64,000 nt of DNA from Lytechinus variegatus (lineage: Eukaryota; Echinodermata; Echinoidea; Temnopleuroida; Toxopneustidae), in assembly GCF_018143015.1 (NCBI RefSeq), contig NC_054743.1, positions 38,892,922 through 38,956,921 on the forward strand, given 5' to 3'. The notes beneath the pieces were generated by a model. That model worked only from the letters and a program-made list of their open reading frames with translations, was not told where the DNA came from and ran no database searches. A program made the translations under genes and the position numbers. Below are positions 4,396 through 44,960 of this stretch, piece by piece; position 1 is the stretch's first letter; each line of letters opens with the position of its first letter.

Positions 4396-5370
4396 ATGAA
4401 TATCACTACCAATCACAGCTTTACTATTGCCTCTGGCATCGATCCTGAGTCTAGCATATATTTCATCAATCTAGTCCTCTGCATTCTTTTGAACGTTTTA
4501 GTTCTGATCGTCATCAATCGACAAAAAGAACTTCAGGATATGATGCGATTGTTGCACCAGGTATTCGCGGCCGCCACTCTTGTAAATGGATTCGTTTGGA
4601 ATCTTTGGTCTCTTCTATGGTTCCAACTTAAGGATGCATATTCATGTTCAATCCTTGCTCTCATTTTTGTGTTCCCTACTCGTTTTACCACACTTCTGAT
4701 GATGGCCTGTCTCTGCACCATGAACTTAAACCTCTACCTTCTGATCTCTCGACCGATGCGCTATAACATCATTGTTACCACTAAACGGATACGAGTCATA
4801 CTTGCTGTGATCCTTTTGATAGTTCTAATCGGAAGTGGAAGTAGCTTCCCAGTTACGATATCGCCGTTTATCCAGTATAGAATTGACCAGTGTCTCCTGA
4901 AAAGAATCTATCCTAGAAAGACAGTTATAGAAGTTATAGATTCTGTAATTTTAATTCTTCCCATCATTATTACCTTTGTCATTTCGACAGTGGTCTACAT
5001 TAATCTTCTGAGAATAGCTAGACGGCAACAGAAAATGGTTCAAGATTTGGAATTGGGCCTACATGGCCGCATTGGAGCTTCTGGGAATATCTCCGAACAA
5101 AGAGATATCCCTAAAAAGATATTTAAACCGAATGGACGATACAAAGGTGTCATCATTGTAGCTCTTCTCTCAGGGTCATTCCTCGTAGTTTGGGTACCCT
5201 TGTGTGCCTCCCGTCTAATCCCGGAAACTTCCTATGGGTCGCTACTTGATATTTTCGATAAATTTTCCACAACGAGCTCTTGGGTACATCCACTAGTAAC
5301 TCTGGTATCTAACGAGGAGACACGACGACTCTCTATCGATTTCTTTCGAAGTCGCTGTCGACGCCATTGA
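4396..5370 (+). CDS. Single-exon class A (rhodopsin-like) 7TM receptor, surreal-GPCR type; chimeric gene
   Basis: A 324-residue receptor without introns. The ATG at 4396 matches the starts of the paralogues at 17217 and 19445; the open frame reaches further upstream only through a GTG. Two N-glycosylation sequons (N2, N6) precede TM1 (about 20-42). TM2 is 52-76, TM3 84-112, TM4 132-152, TM5 181-207, TM6 250-272 and TM7 286-304. Cys84 and Cys166 are placed for the usual TM3-ECL2 disulfide. Class A landmarks are partly kept: Asn33 (1.50), Pro189, Tyr201 and the W-x-P of TM6 at Trp266. Others are changed: Asn64 sits where Asp2.50 is expected, NLY (112-114) replaces DRY, and HPLVT replaces NPxxY. 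Residues 1 to about 135 are nearly those of gene 17217; residues after about 137, and the downstream DNA, follow gene 19445. It is probably a chemosensory-type receptor at the plasma membrane; the ligand is unknown. Confidence 0.9.
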   Translation: MNITTNHSFTIASGIDPESSIYFINLVLCILLNVLVLIVINRQKELQDMMRLLHQVFAAATLVNGFVWNLWSLLWFQLKDAYSCSILALIFVFPTRFTTLLMMACLCTMNLNLYLLISRPMRYNIIVTTKRIRVILAVILLIVLIGSGSSFPVTISPFIQYRIDQCLLKRIYPRKTVIEVIDSVILILPIIITFVISTVVYINLLRIARRQQKMVQDLELGLHGRIGASGNISEQRDIPKKIFKPNGRYKGVIIVALLSGSFLVVWVPLCASRLIPETSYGSLLDIFDKFSTTSSWVHPLVTLVSNEETRRLSIDFFRSRCRRH

Positions 5371-6252
5371 GCAATTGCATATCCTGTTGCGCAGAAGACA
5401 ATCTCCTGCGAACTAGCGCGATAATTGCGTTTCCATTACAAATAATCTCGAGATTGTACAGATCTGGTCATTTCTAATTTGAAAACTCGGGCTGGTGCAG
5501 ACGGCCCTCATGTAACTGAGAACCGCCGCAATACTGAATGTACTCCTCTGGGCCACATCACATTTCTAGATAATTATGATCAATGGCGGCGCAAGGATCC
5601 TGTCGAGTACTGAGCCTTCAACAGCTACGTTGATCGGTGTTGATATGACCTTTGAAAGAAAGTCGCTTTACAAAGTATACAAATGACTGGCTCTGCATCC
5701 TTGTGGCGTAATAGTGACGGTTCATGCAATAGTGAGATAATAGAGTGGAAGAAAACTAATTTATGATGCAATTTACTCTACTCTTGCGATGTCATGATTC
5801 GTGAGGTTGCAATAAAATGCTTAACTAATGATAAGCGAAGACACCCAGTGTGTTGCATTCATAATGATTGATTACAATGCCAGCTTAGATTTTCAAATTT
5901 GCAGTATCCCCCTCAGAGCGCCTTTATTATTTTTTTTACCTCACACAGTTGAATGCTACTTATGATAGCAGGGGAATCGAAGAAGTTTCGCTATTCAACA
6001 ACACACGATCGATGTAAGCGTGAAATCCTTGCCTATGGTTATCTTGCAGATCTTGTCTGTTGTCGGAACCGCTTTTACAAGGAAAGTAAAATTATTTTCC
6101 GTGTATACAACTATCTTCCTGAAATATTGTAAGTGGCTACTTCAATGCTGTTATTTGCCAAGGAATCAGATCCTTTTGTCGATCGTTGAATGACATTAAC
6201 TAGAGCAACAGTAATCTATGTTTCTGTGGGAACTTAACTTTAAAGAAAGGTA
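5371..6252. other. Downstream flank of receptor 1 and intergenic DNA
   Basis: From the stop to about 5690 the DNA matches the 3' flank of the receptor at 19445 (about 20411-20730), including the GCGCAGAAGACAATCTCCTG block and TTGATCGGTGTTGATATGAC. A possible AATAAA polyadenylation signal lies at about 5812-5817. The stretch 5830-6252, which includes the upstream region of the next receptor, shows no repeat or gene I can name. Confidence 0.6.
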
Positions 6253-7215
6253 ATGGATGAACTGAATAATGATACTATTGAGGCTACCTGGAGCTTCAAG
6301 CATGGAGCCAGCGTGCATGTTGTCAACTTACTCCTTGGAATGACCTTCAACATTATATTTCTAATCGTCATCCACAGACAGAGAAACATTCAGGACGTTA
6401 TGAAGCTGTTATATCGAATGCTAGCAATCGCGTGTCTCATCAATGGAATATCATGGAATTGCTGGTCTTTGCTTTGGTTTGCAGTGAAAGGTCGGCAGCT
6501 ATGCTCTCTTATTACACTTATATTTGTGTTCCCATCTCGTCTGACATTAGTTTTAACAATGGCGTGTCTTTGCGGCATCAACGTCAACAAGTACCTTCTG
6601 ATCACTCGACCATTGCGTTATCACACCATTGTTACCCCCAGACGAGTCAAAGTTACTTTTGTTACTTCTCTCATTGTTGTGTTGGTTTTCAGTGGGTGCA
6701 ACTTTCCAGTTCCGACTTCCCCTGTTACTCAACAGGATATTGAGGAATGTGTGATGAAAAGGATCGTACTGAATCACAAATTAGGCGAACTTCTTAGCAC
6801 CATTAGTTACTTCGTACCTCTAAACTTCACATTTTTACTATTGTTGGGCATCTACATAAATCTTTTGACAATTCTGCGAAAACAAAAAAAGGCTGTTGAA
6901 AACTTTGAAATGCATGTTGCTGCCTGGAATCTGCAAGGCCTGGGGAAACAGCAGGGACCACGGGGTCGATTCAAAGGCATCTTCACCGTAGCTCTTTTGT
7001 CCGGTTCTTTCCTTGCTGTATGGACACCATTGTGTCTGTTACATTTGATTCCAGGAGTTTCGTCGGGTAACTGGCTAAACGTCTTGGATAAGTTGGCTTC
7101 TACAGCTTGCTGGGTCCAACCCCTCGTATACCTAACGACTACCAAGGAGGCTAAGATGACTTGTATTAACTTCATTCAACGGTGTGTTCATTTTGACCGG
7201 GCTTTATTCGTTTGA
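6253..7215 (+). CDS. Single-exon class A 7TM receptor, diverged member of the same family
   Basis: A 320-residue intronless receptor, clearly homologous to the other three in the cluster but the most diverged. The start is the first ATG of the frame. The N-terminal tail has one sequon (N7, NDT). Seven hydrophobic segments are in register with its paralogues: TM1 about 20-41, TM2 52-76, TM3 84-112, TM4 132-150, TM5 184-206, TM6 241-263 and TM7 276-295. Cys84 and Cys166 are the expected disulfide pair. Asn64 stands at the 2.50 position, NKY (112-114) replaces DRY, and QPLVY (289-293) stands for NPxxY and keeps the Tyr. Trp257-Thr-Pro is the TM6 W-x-P. The third intracellular loop (about 208-240) is shorter than in the paralogues. 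Neither flank shows the duplicated blocks of the other genes, so it is an older member. Confidence 0.88.
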   Translation: MDELNNDTIEATWSFKHGASVHVVNLLLGMTFNIIFLIVIHRQRNIQDVMKLLYRMLAIACLINGISWNCWSLLWFAVKGRQLCSLITLIFVFPSRLTLVLTMACLCGINVNKYLLITRPLRYHTIVTPRRVKVTFVTSLIVVLVFSGCNFPVPTSPVTQQDIEECVMKRIVLNHKLGELLSTISYFVPLNFTFLLLLGIYINLLTILRKQKKAVENFEMHVAAWNLQGLGKQQGPRGRFKGIFTVALLSGSFLAVWTPLCLLHLIPGVSSGNWLNVLDKLASTACWVQPLVYLTTTKEAKMTCINFIQRCVHFDRALFV

Positions 7216-16636: not shown

Positions 16637-17216
16637 CATCAAATATCGTGGTACAATTTTTTTTCACGTCACATATTTATCGTGTAAGAGTTCGAGGGAT
16701 TGAGAGGGGGCTGGTTTAATAGCCTTGATGGTTTCACAAATCTGCAAGTTTGTTCTTGCGACATGCTGAAAAGACCAGTATGTCATTACATGTTTGATTT
16801 TAATACTGTCAATCTAAAAAAGAAACAGTGATTGCTTTCATATCTAAACGGATCCATTAACGTGTTAAAAATGAAGTGGAACTCGGGATTTAGCTGCTCA
16901 GATGTTAGGCAGACAATTATGAACATGTCACATGATTACGAAACCATTATCGTCTCATCTTTTACATGATTTCGAAAATAGCTTCGAAAGATAAAAAGAT
17001 GACTTTTTTCATTTTCGCCTGCTCTATCAACAAAATCGAGCTTTTTTAAAAAATAAAGGGTGACGATGCAACCAAGTAGAACACATCAGGAACTAATTCG
17101 TTTGGTTTGCACCGGCTTTGAAATATTTTTTTTGTGTGACTAGTATCATCATTTAAAAAGAGCAAACCATAGGCCTATTTGTTAAAAACACGCTGCTTAT
17201 TAAAATTGATACTGAT
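16637..17216 (+). promoter_or_regulatory. Upstream block of receptor gene 17217
   Basis: Closely similar to 3795-4395 upstream of the receptor at 4396 and therefore the likely promoter and leader of this gene pair. It joins block copy A at about 16600-16637. Shared short blocks include CACGTCAC, TTAATAGCCTTGATGG and CACATGATTA. No clear TATA box or initiator could be assigned. Confidence 0.5.
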
Positions 17217-18185
17217 ATGAATATCACTGGCAATCCCAGCTTTACTATTGCTTCCGGCATCGATCCTGAGTCTAGCATATATTTCATCAATCTAGTCCTC
17301 TGCATTCTTTTGAACGTTTTAGTTCTGGTCGTCATCAATCGACAAAAAGAAATCCCGGATATGATGCGATTGTTGCACCGAGTATTCGCTGCCGCCACTC
17401 TTGTAAATGGATTCGTTTGGAATCTTTGGTCTCTTTTATGGTTCCAACTGAAGGACGCATATTCATGTTCAATCCTTACTCTCATTTTTGTGTTCCCTAC
17501 TCGTTTTACAACACTTCTGATGATGGCCTGTCTCTGCACCATGAACTTAAACCTCTACCTTCTGATCTCTCGACCGATGCGCTATAACATCATTGTAACC
17601 ACTAAACGGATACGAGTCATACTTGCTATAATTCTTTTGATAGTTGTGCTTGCAAGTGGAAATAACTTCCCCGTACCTAAGTCGCCTTTTATTCAGAATA
17701 AACTAGACCAGTGTATCATGAAGAAAATCGTTCTCAAACAGAATCGGCTAGAAATTATTGACTCTGTAATTATAATTTTTTCGATCTCCATTACCTTTGC
17801 AATTTCGGTTGTGGTCTACATTAATCTTCTGAGAATCGCTAGAAGGCAACTTAGAATCGTTGAAAATTTAGAAATCTATGGCCGGAATAGTGACGCAGGA
17901 AATACCTCTGAACGTAGAGATGCGCGTAAAGAGAAACCCGGACAGATTGGGCGATTTAAAGGAGTGTTCACTCTAGCTCTTCTGTCAGGGTCGTTTCTCT
18001 TGGTGTGGATGCCCTTTTGCGTGACTCGTCTATTCAAGAAAGTTTCCTCAGGACTGCTGTTTACAATCCTCGATAAAATTGCTTCAGCAAGCTCCTGGGT
18101 CCACCCATTAATACATTTGGTGACCAACAGGGAGGCAAGGCGACTTGCTATCGATTTCTTTCGAACTCGATTTCGACGTCAATGA
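17217..18185 (+). CDS. Single-exon class A 7TM receptor, surreal-GPCR type
   Basis: A 322-residue intronless receptor. The ATG is the first in frame, at the position of homology to gene 4396. Seven hydrophobic segments occur at TM1 about 20-42, TM2 52-76, TM3 84-112, TM4 132-152, TM5 182-207, TM6 246-268 and TM7 283-302. Cys84 and Cys166 are the likely disulfide. Asn64 stands at 2.50, NLY (112-114) at DRY, a W-M-P motif in TM6, and HPLIH at NPxxY. The N-terminal 135 residues are almost those of gene 4396; the second half differs from it in ECL2, TM5, the third intracellular loop (with NTSERRDARKEK) and the C-terminus. A basic C-terminal tail (RTRFRRQ) follows TM7. Its last codons and 3' flank were duplicated to 13731. 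Expected at the plasma membrane and likely sensory; G-protein coupling is unknown. Confidence 0.92.
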   Translation: MNITGNPSFTIASGIDPESSIYFINLVLCILLNVLVLVVINRQKEIPDMMRLLHRVFAAATLVNGFVWNLWSLLWFQLKDAYSCSILTLIFVFPTRFTTLLMMACLCTMNLNLYLLISRPMRYNIIVTTKRIRVILAIILLIVVLASGNNFPVPKSPFIQNKLDQCIMKKIVLKQNRLEIIDSVIIIFSISITFAISVVVYINLLRIARRQLRIVENLEIYGRNSDAGNTSERRDARKEKPGQIGRFKGVFTLALLSGSFLLVWMPFCVTRLFKKVSSGLLFTILDKIASASSWVHPLIHLVTNREARRLAIDFFRTRFRRQ

Positions 18186-21100
18186 GCGACCGCATTTCTG
18201 TAAGGTGTTTTTTAGAGATGGAGTAGGAGGCCTCCCTGATACGAAAAATTATTTTCATGAGATGTAAAGAACATAAGGAAAAGGTTGTCCACATGCCATC
18301 AACGTCTCACTTCATCCGCATTGACATCATTGTTTGTAAAGAACATTGACGCGACTTATAGAGACCTACCAGGGGAAAATTTCATGACATAATTTAAATA
18401 CGACATTTCTAATATAAATAATCAGACAGCCATTTACCAAATTAAAAAGAAAGGAAAGTATACCAGATCTGACAAATCTATAGATGACATATTGACAATA
18501 AAAAAATCTCCATATGATCAAACACATCACATGCACATTTTCAGCGCCATGCTTATGTTTTATAAATTTCTTTTTGTTTTTCTTTAAAATCATATTTTCG
18601 TTGGAGAGGATTTGGTCTATATTATACGCCGACTGTGTTCAGGGAACAATTTAAAATGCTCAGATCCACTGACAAGATTAGCACTCATGCTCCAAATCTT
18701 TAAGTCTTCGAAGAGAAAAATAATCTAAGGCATTTAAATAGCCTGTAGATTTATAATCCGACATTAAACGAAAATTATTGGTATATTCGAACGAGATCGG
18801 GAAACGAACGGAAATTGGGATCATTCGGAAAATGCAAACAACCAAAAAAGCGGCTGACTAGAACAGGAACATCGATGTTTATTTTTCACGTTAAACATCA
18901 ATCGTGAAAAGTATCGAGAGGGAAGGCTGGTTTAATATTCCGGTCCTGTATAATAATGATTGATGGTTTCATAAAATCTGCATTTGTCCCTGTGGACTTG
19001 CTGAAAATGATGACTATATTAATGGATATGTCATTCACAGGCAATCTCATAATACAGCAATGGTTTACATCATATGTATTCAAATGGAATCCATTGACTT
19101 GTCAAAAATAATTAGGGAGTGGAACTAGTGATTTGCCTGCTCAGGTATATTGGGGAGATGATTAGGAAGATGTCACATGATTCGGAGACCATCCTCATTT
19201 AATCTTTTACACGACTTCGATAGGTACAAAGACGACTTTCGTTATTTTCGCAAGCTCTGTCAATGAGAACGTTTATTAAAAATGTTAAATGAAGTAGAGC
19301 ACATCAGGAACTAATTCTCATGGTTCGCACCAGGTTCCAAATAACCTCCATTTTGTTCTCTATCCATTGATGAAATTTTGGGATTTTCATCCTCGCTTGA
19401 AATCGGCAAACTATATTTGACACCAAGTTTTAGCGAATATCGATATGAATATCACTAACAATGACAGATCCACGGTTGGGTTTGAAATTTATCCTAAGTC
19501 TTGCATATATCTTGTCAATCTAGTTCTTTGCATATTTTTTAACGTTTTGGTTCTGATCGTCATTACTCGTCAAAAAGAACTTCAGGATATGATGCGATTG
19601 TTGCACCGAGTGTTTGCGGCCGCCACTCTTGTAAATGGCATCGTGTCGAATCTTTGGTCTCTTCTATGGTTCCAACTTAAGGACGCACATTCATGTTCCA
19701 TCGTTACTCTCATTTTTCTGTTCCCGACTCGTTTTACCACACTTCTGATGATGGCCTGTCTCTGCACCATGAACTTAAACCTCTACCTTCTGATCTCTCG
19801 ACCGATGCGCTACAACATCATTGTTACCACTAAACGGATGCGAGTCGTACTTGCTGTAATTCTTTTGATAGCTCTAATTGGAAGTGGAAATAGCTTCCCA
19901 GTTACGAGATCGCCCTTTATCTACCATAAAGTTGACCAGTGTCTCCGGAAGAGATTATTTTCCGGACAGACAACTGCGGAAGTTATAGATTCTGTAACTG
20001 TAATTATTCCAATCAGTATTACCTTTGTCATTTTGACAGTGGTCTACATTAATCTTCTGAGAATAGCTAGACGGCAACAAAAAAGGGTTCAAGATTTGGA
20101 AATGGGCCTACCTGGCAACATTGGAGCTTCTGGGAATATCTACGAACAAAAAAATATCCATAAAAACAGATTTAAACCGAATGAACGATTCAAAGGTGTG
20201 ATCACGGTAGCTCTTCTCTCGGGGTCATTCCTCGTAGTTTGGGTACCCTTGTGTGTGTGTCGTGTAACTTCTTCTGGGCAGCTAGTTGATATTTTCGATA
20301 AATTATCCACAACGAGCTCTTGGGTACATCCACTAGTAACTCTATTATCTAACAAGGAGACACGACGACTCTCTATCGATTTCTTTCGGCGTCGCTGTCA
20401 TGGCCATTGAGCAATTCCATATCTTGATGCGCAGAAGACAATCTCCTGCGCGAACTAGCGCGATAATTGCGTCCCCCTTACAAATAATCTCGAGATTGTT
20501 CAGATCGGGTGAATTTGCCGGATCAGAAATAGCGCGCTAATTAGAAAACTCCGGCTGGTGCAGACGGCAATCATGTAACTGAGAAACGTCGCAACACTGA
20601 ATGTGCTCCTCTGGGCCACATCACATTTCTAGATAACTATGATCAATGGCGGCGTAAGGATCCTGTCGAGTAATGAGCCTTCAACAGCTACATTGATCGG
20701 TGTTGATATGACCTTTGGTGGATAGTCGCTCTATAGGAATGACCCATCTGAGGTGCAAGCTGCCATTTCTTGTCTACGCAGGTTGGTGTGATTTCTCTTG
20801 AGATATTTCTGAAATGTCTGAAAATGGAAATCAACTATATGCGAAAATCAGCGGCACCTCCACTTTTTCCTCTGGGTGATATTCAAAACCTGAATCCATG
20901 AAAGCGATGAAACATCTCGGTATCTTTATCAAGGATGATCTCAAGTAAAAACCTTCCGTGAATTATTTGTAGAAGTGAGTAGGAAACTGAATATGCTTCG
21001 AGTTCTGAACGAACTTTTTTTACCATTCCGCGACATGTTTCCCTTTTTTTCTATTTTCTCTGTACCGGAATATGACACGTGTGGCACAGGGCTAAAATCC

Positions 21101-23384: not shown

Positions 23385-26023
23385 TCAAACAGAAAAGAGC
23401 TCACTTTCATTTACGTATTTAGGAATCTTCGAATCATACACCGGTTCCTTGGTACTGAACACATAATAGCCTGATTCTTGTTTAAGGCTTCTTTTCTCGA
23501 TGTCATTCACGTATTCGTTGTCCCTGTCAGGCAAACGAGGAGGGTCATAGGGAACGTATGTATCGTCCTGGACATCGAGGTAGGTATGCGAACCGTGGAG
23601 TATGTCGAAATCAGGACCATCGTTGTTGGTTTTCTGTTTATAATGTAAATCACAAGTGCATGATTATAAACATTATTTGAACATGAATCTTATTTCTTAA
23701 AATGCAATCATGGTGAACATATTCATGGATGTATGAGATAACAAATTCACTCTGCTTCTTCTTTTTTTTAGAAAACAGAAATAATACACAACAACAACAA
23801 AATCGACCTTAATAATGATGATTATAATAATAATGATAATTATTAATGATGATGATGATAAGAATGTGATGTATAAATAGCCTAATCCAGAGTGTAGAAT
23901 GAGCAAGGCGCATGAAGAATTAACAAGTAAATGAAGAAGGAACCCAGAAGTGGATGCCCCTACAAATTGCGATTTTTTTAACACCACTGTCTTAAGTACA
24001 TTAGTGCTAGTCACATTGTTTTTTATTCAGCAAGTACATGCCGATTGAATCATGGTAAAAAATTTGCTTACTGCCAGAACATGGGTAGCAAAGTGAAATC
24101 ATGCAAATTTGTTTGATATACTTTAACATATGTTTTTAATGTGGTGGTGAAATACTGATAAAAATCAATTGGTGTTCCCTAATAAGCTTGAAATCATGAT
24201 TTACTTAGTACACTTTTGTAAATACGACCCAGTAGATTCGAACGATCGTTGTCGTTTTGTAGTTGATACCTCAGCTATATTTCCCCACTCACCTTTGAAA
24301 CATTTGAGGGTTTCATCATGGGATCGACATCAGAAAACTCTTCATAAACACCATCATCATCACCAGTCCTCGCCATCATCCCATTCTCTGGCCGAATGGC
24401 AATCAATTGCGTAGACTTCATTAAGCTCGTTGATGGTGGATGGGCGACAATGAGTCCTGCTCGGGGATCTGATGTGGGTGGCGTTAAGATGAAACTGTCC
24501 TTTGACCGTTCCTTGGTTGTTGACAAGATCCTCTGGCAATAGTACACGGTGCCGAACAGTGTCATGGTAAGAAGTACAGGGATAACAACTATGATGGCTA
24601 TCAGGATTATGGTAGTCATATGAAATGTATTTGACTGGTATGTTTCGGAGTTGCCATGGGATTGAGGTTTCGTTGCCATTGTTGAATAAATGTTGGTAGA
24701 TGGTTTCGGTGTACCTTGGGATTCTACGAGAAGAGTACCAGATCGAGAACTGGGATGGCTGTATTCATCGCATATGCTCTGAAGAGAAACTCTTCCAACA
24801 TCTCCATCTTTTCCTTGAGAGTCACAGGTTGCTTCATAACCTGGATTTCGGTCAAGCCAGTCTCCTAAGTCCATTATGGCACATTCGCAGTTAAGTGGAT
24901 TGTCCGCAAGATTGGTGATGTTTATCCACGGTGTCTCAAAGATTAGGCTATAAACTTTCTTTAAGCGGTTTGAAGACAACAGTACGGTCTGAATATATTT
25001 CAGCCCTTTGAAGGTGTCTGGATCTATCCATGTGATCATGTTAGATGAAAGGTCAATTATTTCGAGGCGAAGGTTGTTTTGGAACAATAAGGTCACACGA
25101 TCCAGAGCATTGTCGGACAGATTTAGGAATGTAAGATTCACGAGATTGGCGAAGACATTAATCGGAAGATTAGAAAGTCTATTTCTTTTCAAATAAAGAT
25201 GTCGAATCTGTGGAATGTTGATAAATGAATCTTCTGCAAGCTGAACCAAATTTGTTTTATCTAGGGATAACGTTTCTAGGTTGTCGAGGCCACTGAAAAC
25301 TCGGCTATTTCTAATTTCTGTCAGATTATTACCGCTCAGATCTAGTATCCTTAGAAGATGGAGTTTTGCAAAGCAATATTGAGGCAAAGAGAAGATGAGA
25401 TTATTTGAAAGGGACAATGATCGAAGTACATTCCCTGCACCAAATGCATCACATGGTGGTTCCCGAAGATGATTCCCACCGAGTTCAAGCGAGCCAAGAC
25501 TCTGCAAGTTCTTGAATGTCTCCTTGGCAATGTTTTCCAGGCAACCCTCAACAACCAAAAGGAACTGAAGTTTGGCAAGACCCCGAAACATCCCACCATT
25601 TAAGTCGGAAAAACAGTTTCCCCCAAGTCTGAGATATTCAAGTTTTCCAAGACCCACGAATGCGTTCGATGATATGTTATCCAATCTGTTATTTCCTAGA
25701 TAAAGGAATTGGAGGTTGGTGAAATCTTCAAGGTCGTATGGGTTTAAGCGAGTGATGCGATTATTGTTCATCTTCAATGTTCTTGCCTGGTTGCAGGTAC
25801 CTGGTACTGCCGTTAATTGCCGATTCGAGCAGTTGGCGATTTTAGTCCAGTTGTCATACTGGCAGATATTTGGGCAAGAAGAATGCTTCGGGCTCGTATA
25901 TTGGGCGTTGGCTAATAGCGAAATAGAAGACATATGGGTAATGAGCAAAAGGTCTACGATCGAGCAGAAAAACACCAGCTTGTCTCGAAATTGACGACCG
26001 GTATGAAGACGCGACGAACCCAT
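23385..26023 (-). CDS. LRR type I transmembrane receptor with a tyrosine-rich cytoplasmic tail (two coding exons)
   Basis: Exon 1 runs 26023 to 24293 (577 codons) and ends at an AAG|GTGAGT donor; exon 2 is 23633 to 23385, after a CAG acceptor, in phase 0, giving 659 residues. Without splicing, exon 1 would stop five codons after the donor. Domains: signal peptide (hydrophobic, about 15-41); LRRNT with Cys50, 54, 65 and 77; about twelve LRRs of 23-25 residues (82-375); LRRCT with Cys379, 381, 400 and 418; a Ser/Thr-rich stalk with sequon-like sites; a TM helix about 470-496; and a cytoplasmic tail of about 160 residues. Tail tyrosines lie at 560 (VYEEF), 595, 603 (YVPY), 606 (YDPP), 618 (YVND), 633, 634, 643 and 650 (YVNE). 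There is no TIR or kinase domain. It is probably a cell-surface adhesion or immune-type receptor signalling through SH2 adaptors; the ligand is unknown. The CAG at 26043-26045 suggests an upstream 5' UTR exon. Confidence 0.88.
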
Positions 26024-26100
26024 CTTTATGACAAGTTACAATCTGAAAAGAAATTAAATTGTAAATATTTCATTTTTTTCTCCAAAAAAAATCCCGTTTG

Positions 26101-33430: not shown

Positions 33431-36400
33431 TCAAGATTTTTCTAACGGCTTTGCATACTTCTCAAGGAATGGCAAGAATCTTGGAAAGACATCATCAGAT
33501 GCATCTTTTCCGACGATGCAGTCGAGGTGTCCATAGTCAGGGACCATGAACCACTCATAGTCCTGGTCTGGGTTTGCTTCCTTGCACCGTTCATAGCTCT
33601 GCTTCGTGGTCTCTGGATCCCAACAATGGTTGTCCTGTCCGCTGAAGTACAAGATGGGAATGTCCAAGTGCTTCATCTGCTTCCGGTATGCTTCGGAGTT
33701 CAGCCTATCTGGACAATGGAAGTCTGGAAGGTACGGCTCTGCATCGTCTTCTATTCTGTCGAGGAAACCTTGGCGGGTGCAGTGAGCAAAGTGCTTGAAG
33801 ATATCAGAGTGGACGTAGCCATTCCATTCGTGCAGAGTGTCGTGTGTTGATGGGTTCATATTCTGATGAATCCAGAGGAGACTGTAAATGAACGTTATCC
33901 GATGGCACACGTCGCTATCACATTGCTCTCGACTCTCAGACGTGATATTTGAGATGCCATCAAAGACTCGGTTCATGAACTTCCGATGCCAGGCATCCTC
34001 TATGTCAGAGTAAGCGCTCATGCCCTTCACTCCGATGCATTGGAGAAACTTCGGAAGGCGTGCGTTCGCCTTGAGCTTATTGAATCTGCTGACAATAAAA
34101 CGGAAGCCGACTTGGGAAACAACCATGCTGCGGATTTTCCCAGTCAGGTGTCCACCAAGAAGAGAGGCATGCATTGTAGCCGATCCAGCGCAGTGAGCGA
34201 AGACTTGAATATTTGGTGCCCCAGTGACCTTCATCATAAAATCTACAGCTGGGGGAATGTCTTTATCTGCAGGATCACTGATGAAGCTCCCCTTTTTGTG
34301 CGCCTGAAGGGCTATTGAAAAGCGAATCTCAAGGCCCCAGACATCAAAGCCATGCTTTACCAAGAACTCGACGAGACTGACTTCTACTGTGTCTAGAGCA
34401 AAGATGCGATGTGTGACGCCAAGTCCGTGTAATAACAGAATAGGTCCTTTATCCCCACCTTTGTATCTAGTGAATACGAGTGGCGTGCCATCGGTAGCCA
34501 GGAAATGATATACTTGGGGAGTAATCCCGTTCAAATTCAATGGCCTTCGCTTCCGTGGCTCGGAATCGGGACTAAATGGAGAGCTCAAACCGTAAGGATC
34601 AAACACGCCATAGGAATCCACTAAAATGCCTGTGAAGAAACTTCCGAACTTCGCTTTCCATTTCATCCTCAACCTCTTCGAGCAGCAACAGGTCACCTCC
34701 AACGTGGACAATTGCTTCATGAAATCCGAGAACTTCATTTCAAGTTTTCCCTCACCGATCTCCTTCAGGCCTGGTTTGGGTCCTTCCGAGACCTTGATCG
34801 TAAGTGTCGTCGTATCGCTCATACCTATTTCCACCGCGGAGTCCTTGTGCACGGTCTTGACACCTTTGAAGACATAGAACTTGTCCCCGCCATGCAAATT
34901 CATGTCATATGTCATTTCCTTGGTCTCGACATGTTCATCGCTGTTCCGGAACAAGTGGAACACTCCGTTCGAGACTGTCAAGGGTTTATCGTGTAATGCC
35001 TTACACGTGACTGTGCCGTGGATAGCTGCCTTGTGTTCGGGATCCACTTCGAGCATGTGCTCGATGTCGTGACTCTCAATAGTCAGAGTGAATTCGGCAG
35101 GATACGGGAAACCATCGACGGTCAGGTCGCCGACCATGCGTTCAGTGAATTTCAATCCAGGTTTACACTCGCTCTTCGGTTTCTTCTCTGTACGGATCAA
35201 AACAAAAATAAACACTGTAATCGTTAGCACAACCATATATCAAAATATAACTTCGATGAACTGTGCATTCAGTCCAGGGCCCCATCTTACAAAGAGATAC
35301 GATTGATCCAATCAATCGCAACTCTATGGAAATCCATCAATGTCATAATTTTTTTCTTTCGGAAATTTGCTCAATGTCCTTTGAAAACAAATAGAAGCAT
35401 ACTGAATTGTCAAGAAAACAGTGAACATATTAATATACGTCATTTCTAGAAAACGTTTTGAACAAACATGCATTTTAGATGTTGATGTTGCTGGCTTTAC
35501 ATAGCTGCGATCAACTGGATCAATCGAAACTCTTTGTAAGATGGGCCCAGGTTTGTAGTCGTGTCTGGTTTATTTGATCTTTTCATGATAAAATATGTAA
35601 TCAACTGTTTTGCTTGATACAATAGGCCAGAGGAGATCAAGAAAAATCGAATCTTTATCAAATACATATGATAGTTTCATCTGCATTTTATAACAGGCTA
35701 TTAATCATGTTAATTGACAAGCCTGTGCATCGGGATAGCAGCCGGACTTAAATTCAAAATAAAAAAGTGAACATTTGTCAACTCTACAGAATGGATATGA
35801 ACGATTTTAAGAGTGTAGCCGGCTTTACATTAGTTGTATTCATCATTGTCATTATCTATTCTCAATTCCCATGAAATTTAAACAGTTACAAAACACATAT
35901 GCAAATGAATACGTAATACGCATACGCTGCGTTCGAAGAAAAATATCCGTATCCAATCCTCGTTAATCTTATTTGGGTATTAACATAATAGGGCTTTATT
36001 ATGTTCCACATTTATTTCAACCCAGTGGCGTACCAACGATTTTCCACAGGGGGGGGGGCAAAATCGTCCGCCAAAAAATTTGACAAGCAAAAAAAAAGGT
36101 CTTCAAGCTCGTCAGGGGGGCCTTAAAGGTCTTCAAGCTCGTCAGGGAGGCAAACAGGGTCTTTCAAGCTCGTCAGGGGGCAGGGAAACGTCATTTGCAT
36201 GGGTTGTGGCTCGTCAGGGGGAGGGGCAGACTGCCCCCTGTAGGTACGCTAGTGTTTCATTCCAAATTTTGAAGATTCGTCATGGATAGACGTACGGCCA
36301 CTTTAATACATTCAGCTGTTACGAAGTCGGATACAGATCATCGCCGATTGTGACTATGAAGTTTGTGAAATCAATTACACCTCGGCTATTATGATATATA

Positions 36401-39400
36401 CATTGTTTGTTTTTTTAACCCGATTTTACAGAACAAATAGAAGATGTTGCAGAAAGCAATAACAGAATCATTCTGTAAATTCATAAAACATGAATTTTTC
36501 TGCAATTTAACAGAACAGGTCTCTTTAAAAAGGGGAAAAGGGGGTTTAAATATTAAAGGAAATTTGTATGGTTCCATACACCCAAATATGCAATCTGGTA
36601 AGATTACAGGTGTTCTCGAGACTCTGCTGCAGGAACCTCTTTTATTTTAAGGATAAATTTTCTAACAGTGGAGGTGAGAACAGATAATGGCAGGTCAATC
36701 TTCCCAATACACAACTAACTTTGCACAACTATTATAATCAAGGAAAATAACCCCAATTTTATTGCAGGATCCCAATAAACTATACATTCTTTTAAAACCG
36801 AATACTTACTTAGAGGTTTACCGAATTCGTAGTTGATTGTCCAGCCATTACTCTCAGCAAGGAGACGCATGCATCTCTCTGCAACCATACTGATTGTCAG
36901 TGTGGGATTAACACCGAGACTACGGGGCATGACAGCGCCATCTACGACGAGAAGACCGGGATAGGTTTCAGCTGAATCTCCTTTAAAGACGTGTCCAGAA
37001 TGGTCAACCACACCTTAAAAAAGATTAATGATCCATAATAATATATTTTGACCATAAAATAATGAATTAGAGCTTCCTAGCTAGTTGAAATGAATTAGCT
37101 CACAGATAATATGCATAGAGAGAACAGTATTAGTTCAATAAAGACGTAATTCGAACTACATCAACTTTTTTCCTTATTGATTGAACAGCATTTTAGCGCT
37201 ATCAGTCACTCATTGATTGGAACCAGAAGGAAATTTCTTGAGCTTATTTTATTGTACAAATTGTCTTCAAAATAGATGTGAGTTCTCATTAATTCTACTT
37301 AAATTTCCTCTTTTCTGTTGTCTACATTTGAATTGAAAAAGGAGTTACAAGTAACAGGTTACCTTGTTTTCCGGATTCCGCCATGCAGCATCCGCCAAGA
37401 GGGTGTACGGTCACAACACCTCTGGTGCCTTTGAGCTTCGGAATAACACCACCCCAAGTAGGATTCGCTATGACCTCTCCTTTGAGAACTTTTGTTGCCG
37501 ATCTTGCTGCATCATAGATCTTCTGGAAATTTCGCTCCTCGCCTATATTTGGGAAGTCTATCCAGACCCGGCCATTGGCTGGGTCATGGCGCATCCGGCC
37601 TGTGCTCGAGTCGTGGCTCATAGAAAGAAACGCCAGAGTGTTCTTGAAAGCAGTACCGGTAATGGAATGAAGGAACTCTGTGAGTTCATTCTCACAAGGT
37701 GACATGTCTTCCCCTATCGAGGTCTTCATGAGCACCTTGTAGGGTAATTCCAGAAGAGACGGAGGTGTGCCGTCCTCCAGAACGAAGCCATCCTCGAGAG
37801 GCATGCCATTCAGATGTCTACGCATGTCCAAGAATCCCGTGATACAAGGTCCAGGCCCTTTCTTCGGCTTCTTTGCCATGTCTTCTAAGGCTATTCCGAC
37901 CGGGCGGATCTTCTCGGTGCCGTTGTAGCTGAAGTTGAGGGCGTCCCCGTTTGTGGTGAAACCTTCACCAAGTCTGGGTGAGAGGGACAAACCGTAGAAG
38001 GCTGACTGGAGCAGAATGTTGGTAGAACCAAGAGATCCTGCTCCAAGGATGACTGTCTCTGCGGATACTGTACGTTCCTCTTCGTTGAAGTCATCTTGAC
38101 CAAGAGGCACATAGTACACAAGCCATCTTCCAGATGACTCGTCTCTTCTGATCGACTTTACTTGAACCTAGTCACAAAAGGATTAAGAATTTAAAAAAAA
38201 TCTCAATTCATTTTAAACAGATGAAGTACGATAAAAAATGCAAAGAGAGGTGTTGAAAGTTTTCATATTCATATCGAAAAATAAAATCGATGCAGCAGCA
38301 ATCATCTGCCATAATGTTCACAAACCATGAACATGATGAATGACTTGACTTATAGTGGGCTTGCTGTCCTCTGTAACAGTAATATACAAGTTAGTACACA
38401 TTCAATGACTTGATTTAAAATTAATTTTTAAAAAATGTGATGGCTCTTGAATAAAATGTGTTGTGTCAAAACAAGAAAATCGGCAAAATATCAGAAAACA
38501 TACAGAAAATCGTAATACAATCTACCCCAAATCATTATTTTTATTAAAGGTGCAGACTCCCCCACCCCACACACACACATCCCATGGTTTCAGCTGTCAC
38601 GATGTTCTCACCTCTGTAAACATGTAAGCGCCATGGGCCTTTGCGTCGGGTAGGTAGTTCATGTTGAGTGTGTTCTTGGCACCAGTGTTACAACCGCTGC
38701 AACAGTTGCCGCAACCGACGCAAGCAGGTTGCGGCAACCCGATGTGGTTTTTCTTCGTCTTCTTGAAATTCACATAGAGCGGTAGCCTGTATGATTGGGA
38801 CACAACCGAGATCATGTCTAAATTATTATACAGAGCGATTTTCCCCCCTTCCCGAAGTCTTAGATTAACGATAGGGGGATATTTTCCATGACACGGAGAA
38901 TATAAAGGCGTGCTGTCACGGTCTCTTTGTGTATCCATGAAGTGTGGTATGAATAGGGGTCGGGTTGCTTGCTAATGGGTCAAAAGAGTCCACTAAGGCT
39001 ATAACATGACTTTTATCCTTTGTCATTGACGAACAAAGTGATTAATTGTTGCATTAACTGAACTTTAGGAATTATCTTTTAATTATCTATTAAATCAATC
39101 TTAAAGGAGAATGAAACCATTGGAACAAGATAGCTTGTGTGAAAACAGAAAAATCAAAGAAACAGATCAAAAAAAGTTTGAGAAAAATCGGACATAAAAT
39201 GAGAAAGTTATGAGCATTTGAATATTGCGATCACTATTGCTATGGAGATCGCAAATTGGCAATGCGACAAAGATTTGTGATGTCACTTGTGAACAGCTCT
39301 CCCCATTACTTTAGTATATATTTCACTTGAATTGCCTCTTTTATCATATCTATCCATAGATCATGTGTTCTTTCTACATGAGGGCATGTAATACATATAT

Positions 39401-40557
39401 TTTAAGAATACATCATGGATAAAGAGTTTGTATCATCATAAGAAAAAGCAAAAAGAAACATTTTGAGGGTATTTTAAAGTCCACCAAAGGGAAAGTTGTT
39501 CATCAGTGACATCACACATCCTTGTCGCATTGCCAATGGGAGGATCTCCATAGCATTAGTGATTACAATATTCAAATGCTCAAAACTTTCTCATTTGTCC
39601 AATTTTTCTCAAACTTTCTTTATTCTTATTCTTTGATTTTTCTGTTTCTACACAAGCCTATTTGTTCCAAAGGTTTCATTCCCCTTTAAGGGTTTGATTT
39701 TATTCTGTGATGTATAACCTTCATTCTATACTTCCTGAGCAAATATGCAGCTAAAGGAAGAGATAAACTATAGAAATACATTATTTCAATTTTCTATATC
39801 AATGAAACTAAACATTAAGAAACTAAAAGGTAGAACATGGTAGGATTACATATTCATTGCAAAATCTAAGTTTACTGAATGACCAATTCATAGCAATTCA
39901 AATTAACATGTCAGCCTTACGTACTTCTTGTAAATTTCTTTGGTTGCCAAGTCTTCGATGTCAGTGAGCAGCCCCTCCGCGATCTTCTTCATAGCTGCTT
40001 CCTTTGGGAGTGACGGGTGGCTATCAGGGTATTTCATTGGTCGAAGCATCGATACCACGTGATCTCGATCGGCGCCGTTTAGGTTGAGGACGTCATCGCG
40101 TAGGTTTTGCGGCCAGGCCTGAATAGATGAAAGATTAAATGAAAATTGAGAGTTTCAAATAGAAACATTGTGAATAATTATACAGTGTTCATATGGTTAA
40201 GGAAAATTTAAGCTACGACTTTTATACTACATGAATATCGCTTCACACAACAAACAAGGGAGAAAAAAAAACCACATAACGCAAATACCATCAGCAAACA
40301 AGCATAGAAACATACAAAAATTTGTCCAAACAGACACATGAATGATAGATACTGTTGTTCAACCTATACCTTGTCTTCGAACACTTCAGGGTCGGCATCC
40401 AGGCCGACATTGGCGTTGATGAGTGATGTCCCACCAAGGCCACATCCCTGAACGACGGTCACCTCTGGTCCCATGATGATGTCGTACAGATCAGTCGGTT
40501 TACCTAGAGTGAGGGGAAAACACACTAAAGAGTAAGATGGGTATCTATAAGATAAGC

Positions 40558-40648
<91 letters not shown>

Positions 40649-42452
40649 ATTGTGAAATAAATGATAGTTAAGGTAAATCTTAATAAAAAAAATCATCATT
40701 TTATCGCTAAATAAATCTTTAAGCCTATTGAAACGCCAAAACAACTCCGAGTGCTTTTCCGCTTTAGAATGAAACTCCTTATGATATCTGTTTTTTAGAC
40801 GTATATCATATTCTATCATATTATATCATATTGTATTATGTTATAATATAATATTATATGATATGATATTATATTTCATATTATGTTATATTATATCATA
40901 TCATATTATATTATATTATAGGGCCTATATGCAATACCTTCCTGCTTATTATTTTTCAAACTATTTTATTTGTTATAAGAACTTTTTTCATCTTGTATCA
41001 TCTACTATTCAATTCTAACATCGCAAGAAGAAATATGCATCAAAATATTGTTCGCATAATCTATTGATATAATAATATTTTTAATGTCAATGCATTAATT
41101 GGGATGGATAGACAGAAATAAGCTATACAAACTAATCGAAAATTGACAAGTTTCATTCCACCCGATAAAAGAAAGGATTCATGGGAAATCCTAGTTTCAT
41201 TAGTATTATTATTCTAAACTAGGTTATGACAACCAGAAAATCCACAAAAAGAATACAATTGTATAGAATGCAACCTTGTGGTAACATGGATAGTTTACCA
41301 ACAACGATTCATCCAAAGAAATCTTTTATTGTTCATTCTCTTTTTTGTTAACCGTCACGTATTCAGTTCGCGTGACACTGCCAGACAATTACTGACGTGG
41401 CTGGTTATTTTAAGCACTCTACGATAGTTGATATTTGATCGTTGGGTATCCATTGATCGAGAAAAGCAACAGCAAAAAATATTTCAAAAGGAATCAAACG
41501 TGCGGAAAGACAGGCATGAATAAATGGCAGATAATACTTTCTTTAAATGGGTGCTCATTACACACTGTAATATAGGATACATAACAATTTATGTGACTGA
41601 GAATATTTAATAGGTCTATTATAAGTCATTCTGTACACGTGCCGCTTGTATCAATCATCCGAGTGTGTTCCAAACACTCTTTCTTTTGATCTCTCTTTCA
41701 TTGTTCTCCACAGAGACGACGCCGACACAACGATACATTTATCGCCAACTGTTTTAGAATATCATTGTACACCGAATATTTCCCTCTTTTTCCTGCATAT
41801 GTTTCAAAATATTTTGTCTTATTTGCAGATGTGGGGGGGGGGGGCAGGGGCCCGGTGAACGATTTTTTTTTATACAGGGGGTGCTGATGTAAATTTGAAA
41901 AAAAAAGGTTTTACTACATAATGTGATTATTTGGTTACATTTTTCCAGTTTTACACATCTTCCAGGACACCCGGGGTGCTGCCCAAAGACCTCATACTAT
42001 GCAGAATGATACACGCAGTACCCCAAAGGAAATTTAGGGGGGTGCTTCAACACCCCCAGAACCCCCTCTACCCAGGGCCATAAGGGGGTGGTTAAAGCTG
42101 AAATCAGTTCCCATTTGTCAATAAAATTATGAGTAATTCATTTCATATATCATTAAAAATCTAGATGGAAAATTTCATCACGTTTCATTGGCAACTTACC
42201 AGTTTCTAATATCCCACTATCTTTCTGAGTAATCTGCGTATTTTTCGCTGCTTCCACCAGTGTTTCGGGAAAGTCCCCTGGCCACCATTCTTTGCCCCTT
42301 TCCAAGACGCACACAGTCTTGCCCGCTCGGGCGCAACGGCTAGCTGCAATAGACCCACCATATCCGGATCCGATCACGATGACGTCATAATGGGGCTGGA
42401 GTTGACTAAGCAGAGAGGAAAGTTTGTATCCGGTGTAATCTGTACCGAATTC
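33431..42452 (-). CDS. Cholesterol-oxidase-like GMC oxidoreductase fused to an alpha/beta hydrolase (eight exons assembled)
   Basis: Exons, 5' to 3': 42452-42200, 40503-40370, 40118-39925, 38786-38612, 38167-37363, 37013-36810, 35187-33431. That is seven firm exons; an eighth (start exon) is tentative at 56235-56264. All junctions are GT/AG and all phases agree, giving 1,173 residues from the first firm exon, which lacks an ATG. The oxidase part has a Rossmann FAD motif (about 23-52, GSGYGG), GGTSLIN (108-114), a cysteine cluster (216, 219, 222, 223, 226) before GAKNT, and the GMC C-terminal pattern HPLGGC (His507) and GVNPTLTI (Asn556), matching the His/Asn pair of cholesterol oxidases. A beta-rich linker (about 596-735) follows. 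The hydrolase has HG (842-843), AHCAGS with Cys921 at the nucleophile elbow, Asp1107 and His1142. The substrate is probably a sterol or lipid alcohol or ester; this is inferred. The same fusion is known in bacteria, so ancient transfer is possible. Confidence 0.88.
35275..35550. mobile_element. MITE with GGGCCCATCTTACAAAGAG ends, in the last intron
   Basis: The left end GGGCCCCATCTTACAAAGAG and the inverse of the right end GGGCCCATCTTACAAAGAG pair, and both continue with CGATTGATCCA. Length is about 276 bases. It lies in the intron between the exons ending 36810 and beginning 35187 of the oxidase-hydrolase gene, close to the acceptor. A related half-copy is at about 63795-63850. Confidence 0.85.
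36023..36254. mobile_element. Short element with CAGTGGCGTACC ends and an internal minisatellite
   Basis: The left end is CAGTGGCGTACCAACG and the right end, read inversely, CACTAGCGTACCTACAGGGG. Inside (about 36099-36225) are four tandem units of TCAAGCTCGTCAGGGGG type (the last shortened to GGCTCGTCAGGGGG). A similar end (CAGTGACGTACCGTGGG) is at about 48382. It lies in the last intron of the oxidase-hydrolase gene. Confidence 0.6.
36409..36670. mobile_element. MITE family M, copy 2
   Basis: Matches 47633-47909 in the same orientation and 11262-11715 in the opposite orientation. It shares GCAATTTAACAGAACAGG, CAATCTGGTAAGATTACAGG and CTCTGCTGCAGGAACCTC, and ends with TTTTCTAACAGTG. The left end is decayed. 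It lies in the last intron of the oxidase-hydrolase gene. Confidence 0.8.
39101..39689. mobile_element. MITE with long inverted repeats and TTAA target site, intronic
   Basis: TTAA flanks both ends. The left end AAGGAGAATGAAACCATTGG and the inverse of the right end AAGGGGAATGAAACCTTTGG continue as inverted repeats of roughly 200 bases. TTAA duplication is the mark of piggyBac and Kolobok transposases. It is 589 bases long with no frame, and lies in the intron between the exons starting 38786 and ending 39925. Confidence 0.85.
40562..40645. repeat. (AT)n microsatellite, about 41 units, near an intron 3' end
   Basis: An uninterrupted AT tract in the intron of the oxidase-hydrolase gene, about 59 to 142 bases upstream of the acceptor at 40504. 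The open frame through it, with alternating Ile and Tyr, is an artefact. Confidence 0.95.
41835..42090. repeat. Interspersed repeat, related to 3325-3555
   Basis: See the shared blocks at 3325-3555. Here it begins with a G-run and GGGCCCGGTGAACG and ends GGGGGTGCTTCAACACCCCC. It lies in the intron after the first firm exon of the oxidase-hydrolase gene. Confidence 0.6.
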
Positions 42453-43210: not shown

Positions 43211-44960
43211 TACCCTTTTCATAAACCCAATTATGCGGCTAATAGCAGCAGAATTTGGTCGTAAAATCGGAGGAGGACCTGAGTTATCCGCATTATTTTG
43301 ATGCTGCAATTATCCGCATAATAGCAGCATCGGGACCAGATTTTGACTTTATTTTTCATAAACCCATCCTCCAATTAGCCGCCTAAGAGTAATGCGGAAC
43401 GCATTTCCAAATAATCCGGATAATTGCCATGGTGCGGTAACAAGGCCACCCTTTTCAGGTTAAACTTCGTAATTCCGAAGGTTCTTTATTCCGAAGGTTC
43501 GTAACTCCGAAACACGTAAATTGCCTATACCTCGATGTTCGTTAATCCGAAAACGAAAAAGGGTTCGTTAATCTGATCATTTGTGGCGTTATTCCGAAAA
43601 CGAAATACGTTCGTTGTTCCGAAGGTTCGATAATCCGAAAACGAAATAAGGTTCGTTGTTCCGTAGGTTCGTTAATCCGAAAACGAAATAAGGTTCGTTG
43701 TTCCGAAGGTTCGTTAATCCGAAAACAAAATAGGGTTCGTTATTCCAAAGGTTCGTTAGTCCGAAAACGAAATAAGGTTCGTTAATCCGAATATTAAATA
43801 AGGTTCGTATTTCCGAAAATGAAATTAATTCATTTTGGTAACAAGAACGGTGCTGTTCTTGCAAGATAACAGGATACGATGCAATGATGATAATGTGTGT
43901 CTTGTGGCCAGGGTGACCAGACGTCCCGTATTTCCCGGGATTGTCCCGTATTTTGCTTGTTTGTCCCGGCGTCCCGACAAGCCCTTCCCGGGACGCCTAA
44001 TTGTCCCGTATTTCAGAATATTGAACAAAATGTATTTAAAAGTGACGAATTTTCATCAAAATAACCAACAGATGACGAAGCAGAGACAACAATAGTAATC
44101 GATAAATAAACTTTTGCAAGTTCTGCGGTGATTTTCTTGCTAACCCAATACATCGCAAACGAACTGGCCTCCTGCCATCGTGTGGCAGGCTACGAGCTAG
44201 GCATGTAGGGTCGGAGCAAAAAATCAACTTTAAAGCTTATGGGTGAAAATTTTTTGCCCCCCCCCCCATTGGCGAAAGTTGGATCCGCCGGGGGGGGGGG
44301 TAGCAGGGGGCACTTGTACCCCTAAAGAAATAACAGGGAAATGCTATTTTTCAAAAATAGGAAATTCCTTTTTTTCAAAATAAATACTTTAATTAAAGTA
44401 TACATTTTAGATTAATTTTCAGGAGCTCTTATTAAAAATGACATCCCCTCCAATACAAATCCTATGATCTAGAGGTTATGATTGTCATGTTGAGGTCACA
44501 AGGTCACCCTTTTCAAACACAACCCCATCGGAGGGGTGTGTGCAGTTGCCATGACAATTATCCGCCTTTTTCAGGTCGGGCGCTCGTAAAAAAATAGTGC
44601 GGATTATTTTCGGAGTTAGTGAATGCAACTTTTATTGAATTATCCGCATTACTGTTAGGCGGATAATATTGGAGGATGGGTTTGTGAAAGTTTCATCAAA
44701 AGCCGTATAAAAAGCGACAAAGACAAAGCGTAGAGTGCCTTTTTATCATTAGATACCGAGAGTTTTGTTTATATAATATGTTCAACGAAGTTTTGTTTAA
44801 ATAAAAAAAGAACAGTTTTTTTTAATTTTGTTAAAAAATAGATGCAAAGTAAATCATCCCAGTCTACACCTAAGTAGGATTTTGTGAATGCAATTTTTAT
44901 TGAATTATCCGCATTACCCTTATAGGCGGATAATTGGAGGATGGGTTTATGAAAGGGGTA
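43211..44960. mobile_element. Composite DNA element with TACCCTTTTCATAAACCCA ends
   Basis: The left end TACCCTTTTCATAAACCCA and the right end, read inversely TACCCCTTTCATAAACCCA, are inverted copies. Subterminal blocks built on ATTATCCGCAT and GGCGGATAAT recur on both sides (43275-43440, 44560-44690 and 44895-44945). Inside lie a minisatellite (43470-43820), a segment starting CAGGGTGACCAGACGTCCCG (43909) that may be part of a hAT-like element, and a G-run repeat at about 44250-44320. No transposase was found. Confidence 0.6.
43470..43820. repeat. Minisatellite of about 42 bases built on CCGAA/TTCG motifs
   Basis: Units of GGTTCGTTAATCCGAAAACG plus AAATAAGGTTCGTTGTTCCG repeat about four times at high similarity, with looser flanking copies. 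Each unit contains the short inverted pair TTCG..CGAA. Because the unit length is a multiple of three, the minus strand has a repeating open frame (EPYFVFGLTNL), which is a by-product. Confidence 0.85.

What the first reader, a model, noticed from the sequence alone, without database searches (positions are those of the whole stretch)
33431..42452. A GMC sterol-oxidase-like enzyme and an alpha/beta hydrolase fused in one animal gene
Seven exons with consistent GT/AG sites and phases join an FAD oxidase with the His/Asn pair of cholesterol oxidases to a beta-rich linker and a hydrolase. Separate enzymes of these types are common, and the fused form is known from bacteria (recalled, not searched). 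In an intron-rich animal locus it suggests an ancient acquisition and a two-step conversion of a lipid or sterol substrate.
Basis: partly seen in the sequence, partly recalled or inferred. Interest (0 to 1): 0.8.

Follow-up and report, generated by a model that had tools for sequence, protein, structure and literature searches.

The report
Sea urchin fused dehydrogenase-hydrolase gene
A sea urchin carries a small family of genes in which two bacterial-type enzymes are joined in one protein: a flavin enzyme that probably also holds an iron-sulfur cluster, and a lipase-shaped enzyme that uses cysteine where lipases use serine; the same joined gene is found here and there across bacteria.

Summary
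On the minus strand, exons at 42452-42200, 40503-40370, 40118-39925, 38786-38612, 38167-37363, 37013-36810 and 35187-33431 join at GT/AG sites in frame into 1,173 residues plus stop. A further 5' exon must exist and was not found. The genome is a sea urchin. It holds four fused copies, one nearly identical to this one, and three linker-hydrolase copies. Paralogue C, 58% identical, shares all six introns; paralogue E has five of six. Bacteria of eight phyla carry the same protein, collinear at about 34-42% identity, so the fusion is a known bacterial arrangement. Two corrections. First, the oxidase half has CxxCxxCxxxC, which contains the 3Fe-4S ligand spacing of FAD glucose dehydrogenase; Pseudomonas and Chromobacterium have a RoxA-like cytochrome c gene next door. 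It is more likely an Fe-S GMC dehydrogenase than an oxygen-using cholesterol oxidase. Second, the hydrolase half is folded like acid lipases but has Cys and Asn where they have the nucleophile Ser and an Asp (83 of 83 bacterial relatives), so thiol acyl chemistry is more likely than serine esterase activity. A sterol substrate is unproven.

The parts
42200..42452 (-). exon 1 (of those found): N-terminal FAD/ADP-binding motif GSGYGG; starts at a splice acceptor, phase 0
   Evidence: homologous acceptors in paralogues C and E
40370..40503 (-). exon 2: [20 protein letters not shown]-binding segment
39925..40118 (-). exon 3
38612..38786 (-). exon 4, holds the four-cysteine motif
38690..38722 (-). 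[11 protein letters not shown] (Cys216, 219, 222, 226): predicted Fe-S ligands, C-x2-C-x2-C-x3-C
   Evidence: spacing compared with BcGDH in PMC6719666
37363..38167 (-). exon 5, rest of GMC substrate and FAD domain up to HPLGGCC
37403..37405 (-). His507, GMC catalytic base (83 of 83 bacterial proteins)
36810..37013 (-). exon 6, C-terminal GMC segment
36907..36909 (-). Asn556, partner of His507 (83 of 83)
33431..35187 (-). exon 7: linker domain plus alpha/beta hydrolase, ends in TGA
34568..35187 (-). beta-rich linker domain, about residues 589-795
33458..34564 (-). alpha/beta hydrolase domain, about residues 797-1165
34190..34192 (-). Cys921 at the nucleophile elbow (A-H-C-A-G); 83 of 83 bacterial proteins have Cys
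33629..33631 (-). Asn1108 at the place of the catalytic Asp of gastric lipases (83 of 83 have Asn)
33527..33529 (-). His1142, catalytic His (83 of 83)

Best explanation
The gene encodes the sea urchin member of a patchily distributed bacterial family of fused enzymes. Most likely mechanism: the N-terminal half is an FAD dehydrogenase of the GMC superfamily that oxidises an alcohol on a hydrophobic (sterol- or lipid-like) substrate with His507/Asn556. It passes the electrons to an Fe-S cluster on Cys216/219/222/226 and from there to an external carrier (a cytochrome c in some bacteria, unknown in the urchin). The C-terminal acid-lipase-like half uses Cys921, His1142 and Asn1108 to form a covalent acyl- or carbonyl-thiol intermediate and releases or transfers the product. 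The gene entered the animal lineage from bacteria already fused, gained introns and then duplicated. Shown: gene structure, homology, fold similarity, residue conservation, shared history of the halves. Inferred: cluster, electron carrier, thiol chemistry, substrate, direction of transfer.
Confidence: 0.55

Rival explanations
1. Sterol oxidase plus sterol esterase: the hydrolase frees a sterol from its ester and the GMC half oxidises it with O2.
For: Nearest solved relatives by sequence are cholesterol oxidases for the GMC half and gastric lipase and lysosomal acid lipase/cholesteryl ester hydrolase for the hydrolase half; folds agree.
Against: Cys and Asn stand in place of the Ser and Asp of acid lipases in 83 of 83 bacterial relatives. 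The four-cysteine motif is absent where cholesterol oxidase 1COY aligns. The gene occurs in Nitrosomonas, Nitrotoga, a cyanobacterium and Pseudomonas, which are not known for sterol use (recalled).
Confidence: 0.2
2. A phosphorylated lipid-like substrate: the fused enzyme acts after a phosphoesterase that exposes the alcohol, in a biosynthetic route rather than in sterol breakdown.
For: A PhoD-like, calcineurin-like or Exo_endo_phos gene lies on the same strand within the fetched flanks in 58 of 83 loci, 12 of 32 organism labels. In Ensifer one 1,908-residue chain holds GMC, hydrolase and PhoD domains.
Against: 16 of 32 labels show no such neighbour by the strict or the wider test. One of the 12 (Amphritea, L107) rests on a weak match to a PhoD segment (2e-8) and had no Pfam hit. 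No chance control was run. Pseudomonas dominates the count of loci. PhoD is not found in the urchin genome.
Confidence: 0.25
3. Bacterial contamination or a dead insertion.
For: The urchin proteins stand apart from the bacterial ones on a long branch, as a decayed or misplaced copy might.
Against: Six introns, seven copies on two contigs, intact frames, dN/dS 0.053 between near-identical copies.
Confidence: 0.01
4. Vertical inheritance from an early eukaryote rather than transfer from bacteria into animals.
For: The trees do not fix the sister of the urchin clade.
Against: With an outgroup the urchin clade lies among fused bacterial proteins, though long branches weaken this; presence in bacteria is sparse and patchy.
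Confidence: 0.25

Closest known systems
Bacterial fused GMC oxidoreductase-alpha/beta hydrolase proteins (annotated 'alpha/beta fold hydrolase' or 'GMC oxidoreductase', e.g. WP_149201188.1, WP_338815766.1)
   Same: Same domain order, length (mostly about 1,140-1,170 residues), catalytic residues and four-cysteine motif; about 34-42% identity over nearly the full length.
   Different: Intron-containing animal gene with paralogues that lack a half or the nucleophile; the PhoD family was not found in the urchin genome.
FAD glucose dehydrogenase alpha subunit (Burkholderia cepacia) and fructose dehydrogenase large subunit
   Different: A fourth cysteine fits a 4Fe-4S rather than a 3Fe-4S cluster; fused to a hydrolase; no hitchhiker subunit identified (not searched for).
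Cholesterol oxidase class I (1COY, 1B4V)
   Different: 1COY lacks the cysteine motif in the aligned segment.
Acid lipases (gastric lipase 1HLG, lysosomal acid lipase 6V7N)
   Different: Nucleophile Ser is Cys; the Asp of the gastric lipases aligns with Asn.
PHA synthase (PhaC)
   Same: Cys at the lipase-like elbow (recalled for PhaC); weak matches TIGR01836 17.9 bits and 9knj E 0.0015.
   Different: Far below the family cut-off of 365.3 bits; Asn rather than Asp (PhaC's Asp recalled).

Membership tests
GMC oxidoreductase superfamily | GMC_oxred_N and GMC_oxred_C profiles above curated cut-off | tested here: met
   42 bits vs 23 and 48.9 vs 24.6
GMC oxidoreductase superfamily | ADP-binding GxGxxG near the N-terminus and catalytic His/Asn pair | tested here: met
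   GSGYGG, His507, Asn556; His and Asn in 83 of 83 relatives
Cholesterol oxidase class I | Fold and sequence similarity | tested here: met
Cholesterol oxidase class I | Oxidation of 3-beta-hydroxysterols with O2 | not testable with these tools
   needs assay
Fe-S GMC dehydrogenases (FAD-GDH, FDH) | Cysteine ligands spaced C-x5-C-x3-C in the cysteine-rich loop | tested here: met
   C216/C222/C226; 83 of 83 bacterial relatives, urchin A, C and E; compared with PMC6719666 passages; equivalence of the loops residue by residue was not aligned
Fe-S GMC dehydrogenases (FAD-GDH, FDH) | Bound Fe-S cluster | not testable with these tools
   needs EPR or UV-visible spectra
Fe-S GMC dehydrogenases (FAD-GDH, FDH) | Cytochrome c partner | tested here: inconclusive
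   RoxA-like cytochrome c gene beside 48 of 83 bacterial genes, 3 of 32 labels; none sought in the urchin
Fe-S GMC dehydrogenases (FAD-GDH, FDH) | Small hitchhiker subunit | not tested
   -
Acid lipase family | alpha/beta hydrolase fold close to gastric and lysosomal acid lipase | tested here: met
Acid lipase family | Ser nucleophile and Asp acid | tested here: not met
   Cys921 and Asn1108; the stretch with the Asp aligns weakly
PHA synthase | Family profile cut-off | tested here: not met
   TIGR01836 17.9 bits vs 365.3
Bacterial fused GMC-hydrolase family | Full-length collinear homology with all three domains | tested here: met

The most novel reading that the evidence does not exclude
An animal GMC enzyme with an embedded 4Fe-4S cluster, fused to a Cys/His/Asn acid-lipase-fold acyltransferase or thiol hydrolase, acquired once from bacteria as a ready-made two-domain enzyme. 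In the urchin it diversified so that some paralogues keep only the redox function (E, nucleophile lost) and others only the thiol domain (D, F, G), in an undescribed lipid or sterol pathway.
Probability: 0.35. Interest if true: 0.72.

Novelty: new variant of a known kind. Interest (0 to 1): 0.5.

Why it matters
If the cluster is real, this would be an Fe-S GMC dehydrogenase in an animal; the Fe-S members known to me are bacterial. It would bring a bacterial redox-plus-acyl module into animal lipid metabolism, and the bacterial neighbourhoods (phosphoesterase, cytochrome c) give testable leads to substrate and electron acceptor. The Cys/Asn version of an acid-lipase fold is a clear target for mechanism work.

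Tried and rejected
First exon: I compared start-to-donor candidates in A, C and E. The only strong match (a nine-residue identical peptide in A and E) lies in a dispersed repeat found several times in A, C, D and E and was rejected. The first exon remains unknown.

Starting at the ATG inside the open frame upstream of exon 1: rejected, because that stretch is a pyrimidine-rich acceptor and the same place in paralogue C is closed by a stop.

Viral origin: a scan of viral contigs found no relative (17 pattern matches, 0 confirmed). A PhoD partner in the urchin genome: none found. Literature: searches of the open-access library listed no paper that, from its title and abstract start, deals with this gene or with the bacterial fusion; the listed papers other than PMC6719666 were not opened, and PMC6719666 was seen by passages only.

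The donor group is unresolved. The quick tree with the Ensifer outgroup put the urchin clade with Balneolota/Bacteroidota rows and one Ectothiorhodospiraceae row (SH-aLRT 98). The careful trees do not resolve it. An AU test did not reject urchin plus four Bacteroidota/Balneolota rows (p 0.585), but I named that group after seeing a tree.

A first codon comparison of copies A and B was out of frame after exon 6; one search replaces it. In one search L103 was left out because it is cut by the contig end. In one search I also counted matches to two neighbours without a Pfam hit as phosphoesterases (63 of 83); one search is the strict recount (58 of 83 on the same strand, 59 on either). L107 (Amphritea) stays in that recount only through a weak match to the Ensifer PhoD segment. 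One search's check of the other urchin GMC genes used a wrong motif and tested nothing; one search replaces it.
Full report
WHAT IS THERE. The window lies on contig C4 of an 869.6 Mb genome of 33 contigs. The genome is a sea urchin. Its 15,693-base mitochondrial contig carries a COX1 with four AAA codons, three of them at positions that are Asn in animal COX1, and AGA at Ser positions (which positions are conserved, and that this is the echinoderm code, is recalled). The nuclear genome holds bindin (PF02084, E 4e-66), an echinoid sperm protein (recalled).

GENE MODEL. On the minus strand, exons 42452-42200, 40503-40370, 40118-39925, 38786-38612, 38167-37363, 37013-36810 and 35187-33431 have AG acceptors and GT donors, start in phases 0,1,0,2,0,1,1, and encode 1,173 residues and a stop. 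Exon 1 starts at an acceptor, so at least one upstream coding exon is missing. The urchin model already has ten residues before the conserved LS segment, while three of four aligned bacterial proteins have only 3 to 5 and the fourth 25, so little of the core enzyme is lost. I could not identify the missing exon.

PARALOGUES. The genome search found seven copies of the linker-hydrolase exon and four of the GMC half; such counts are lower bounds. Copy B at C4:32.22 Mb, on the opposite strand, differs at 25 codons, 21 synonymous and 4 not, dN 0.0015, dS 0.027; the main pieces of its upstream non-coding DNA match at about 86-97%. Paralogue C (C4:48.62 Mb, 58% identical) has the same six introns at the same places and phases. 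Paralogue E (C2:66.5 Mb, 53%) has five of the six, intron 5 being absent. The shared introns therefore predate these duplications. In E the nucleophile Cys is Gly, while the four cysteines and His/Asn of the GMC half remain. Copies D, F and G keep linker and hydrolase and an acceptor at the exon 7 position, but the whole-genome search found no GMC exon near them; F and G are 99.8% identical over that exon.

BACTERIAL RELATIVES. In plasmid records, 7 of 45 matching records cover at least 80% of the urchin protein in one place, at 34-38% identity, six of them as a single piece. Together with the plasmid rows they span Pseudomonadota, Acidobacteriota, Actinomycetota, Myxococcota, Cyanobacteriota, Balneolota, Bacteroidota and Thermodesulfobacteriota. 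The gene is sparse: a match over the full length in 6 of 398 genomes of the Pseudomonadota draw, 2 of 296 of the Bacteroidota draw and 1 of 296 of the Actinomycetota draw, the seed genomes included (one, two and one of these; two candidates scored per genome). Other genomes there matched only the GMC half, GMC plus linker, or the hydrolase. In the genome of L102 (G007) the two halves also occur as neighbouring separate genes, and in Archangium (G009) related halves lie side by side. Halves that stay neighbours when unfused suggest that they work together.

NEIGHBOURS. In 43 of 43 Pseudomonas and 4 of 4 Chromobacterium loci, and 1 of 2 Bryobacterales, a RoxA-like cytochrome c gene lies downstream on the same strand (48 of 83 loci), starting within about 250 bases of the end of the fused gene in all but the Bryobacterales locus, where it is 1.5 kb away. 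That is as expected if electrons leave through an Fe-S cluster to a cytochrome; the other 35 loci show no such match. The family was named by Pfam in L048 only, the rest by similarity to it. A phosphoesterase-like gene (PhoD, calcineurin-like or Exo_endo_phos) lies on the same strand within the flanks in 58 of 83 loci, 12 of 32 organism labels; 16 of 32 labels have none even by the wider test. Ensifer L045 fuses GMC, hydrolase and PhoD in one chain. These are associations without a chance control and weighted towards Pseudomonas.

HISTORY. Both halves give the urchin proteins one clade at 100/100. With outgroups the clade lies among fused bacterial proteins, but outgroup branches are very long and in the careful trees its sister is open. 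Transfer of an already fused bacterial gene into an ancestor of sea urchins is the simplest reading. Its age beyond the oldest urchin duplication cannot be judged without other eukaryotes, which the collections lack.

VERDICT. Observation confirmed; interpretation partly supported. The fusion itself is known from bacteria. What is new here is its intron-bearing, diversified animal family, and the recognition of an Fe-S-type cysteine motif and a Cys/Asn/His hydrolase set, which shift the likely chemistry from sterol oxidase plus esterase to dehydrogenase plus thiol acyl enzyme. The substrate is unknown.

Noticed in passing
window 4369-5370, 6244-7215, 17157-18185, 19421-20410 (+): Four single-exon-sized rhodopsin-type 7TM receptor frames (PF00001 above cut-off), apparently a tandem cluster.
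   Followed up: partly
window 24275-26035 (-): Leucine-rich-repeat protein frame of 586 residues with what looks, by eye, like a signal and a transmembrane segment.
   Followed up: no
window 691-2078 (-): Retroelement remnants: a frame with a zinc-knuckle-like pattern (by eye, no Pfam hit) and a weak reverse transcriptase match below cut-off.
   Followed up: no
C4:32.22 Mb vs window; C4:47.22 vs 48.28 Mb; C13:18.6 vs 24.9 Mb (bindin): Several near-identical or doubled genes megabases apart on one contig; either recent duplications or alternative haplotypes left in the assembly. The likeness of the two bindin copies was not measured.
   Followed up: partly
C2:66.53 Mb (paralogue E): Fused copy in which the hydrolase nucleophile Cys has become Gly while the GMC catalytic and cysteine positions are kept.
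   Followed up: yes
C4:48.609, 47.22, 48.28 Mb (D, F, G): Linker-hydrolase copies with an acceptor at the exon 7 position but no detectable GMC exons; what their upstream exons encode is unknown.
   Followed up: partly
L045:4809-10535: Ensifer single chain of 1,908 residues with GMC, hydrolase and PhoD-like phosphatase domains.
   Followed up: yes
L110:2098-7935: 1,946-residue frame: about 800 extra N-terminal residues without a Pfam hit before the fused enzyme.
   Followed up: no
window 38691-38739: A 23-base, 2.2-copy tandem repeat overlaps the codons of the cysteine motif in exon 4.
   Followed up: no
window 43537-43791: 42-base minisatellite, six copies, about 1.1 kb upstream of exon 1.
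   Followed up: no
L134 and L133 (Rhodococcus plasmids): Solo hydrolase relatives beside thioester reductase and crotonyl-CoA carboxylase/reductase genes; the one in L134 has the Cys/Asn/His set, the one in L133 was not read.
   Followed up: partly
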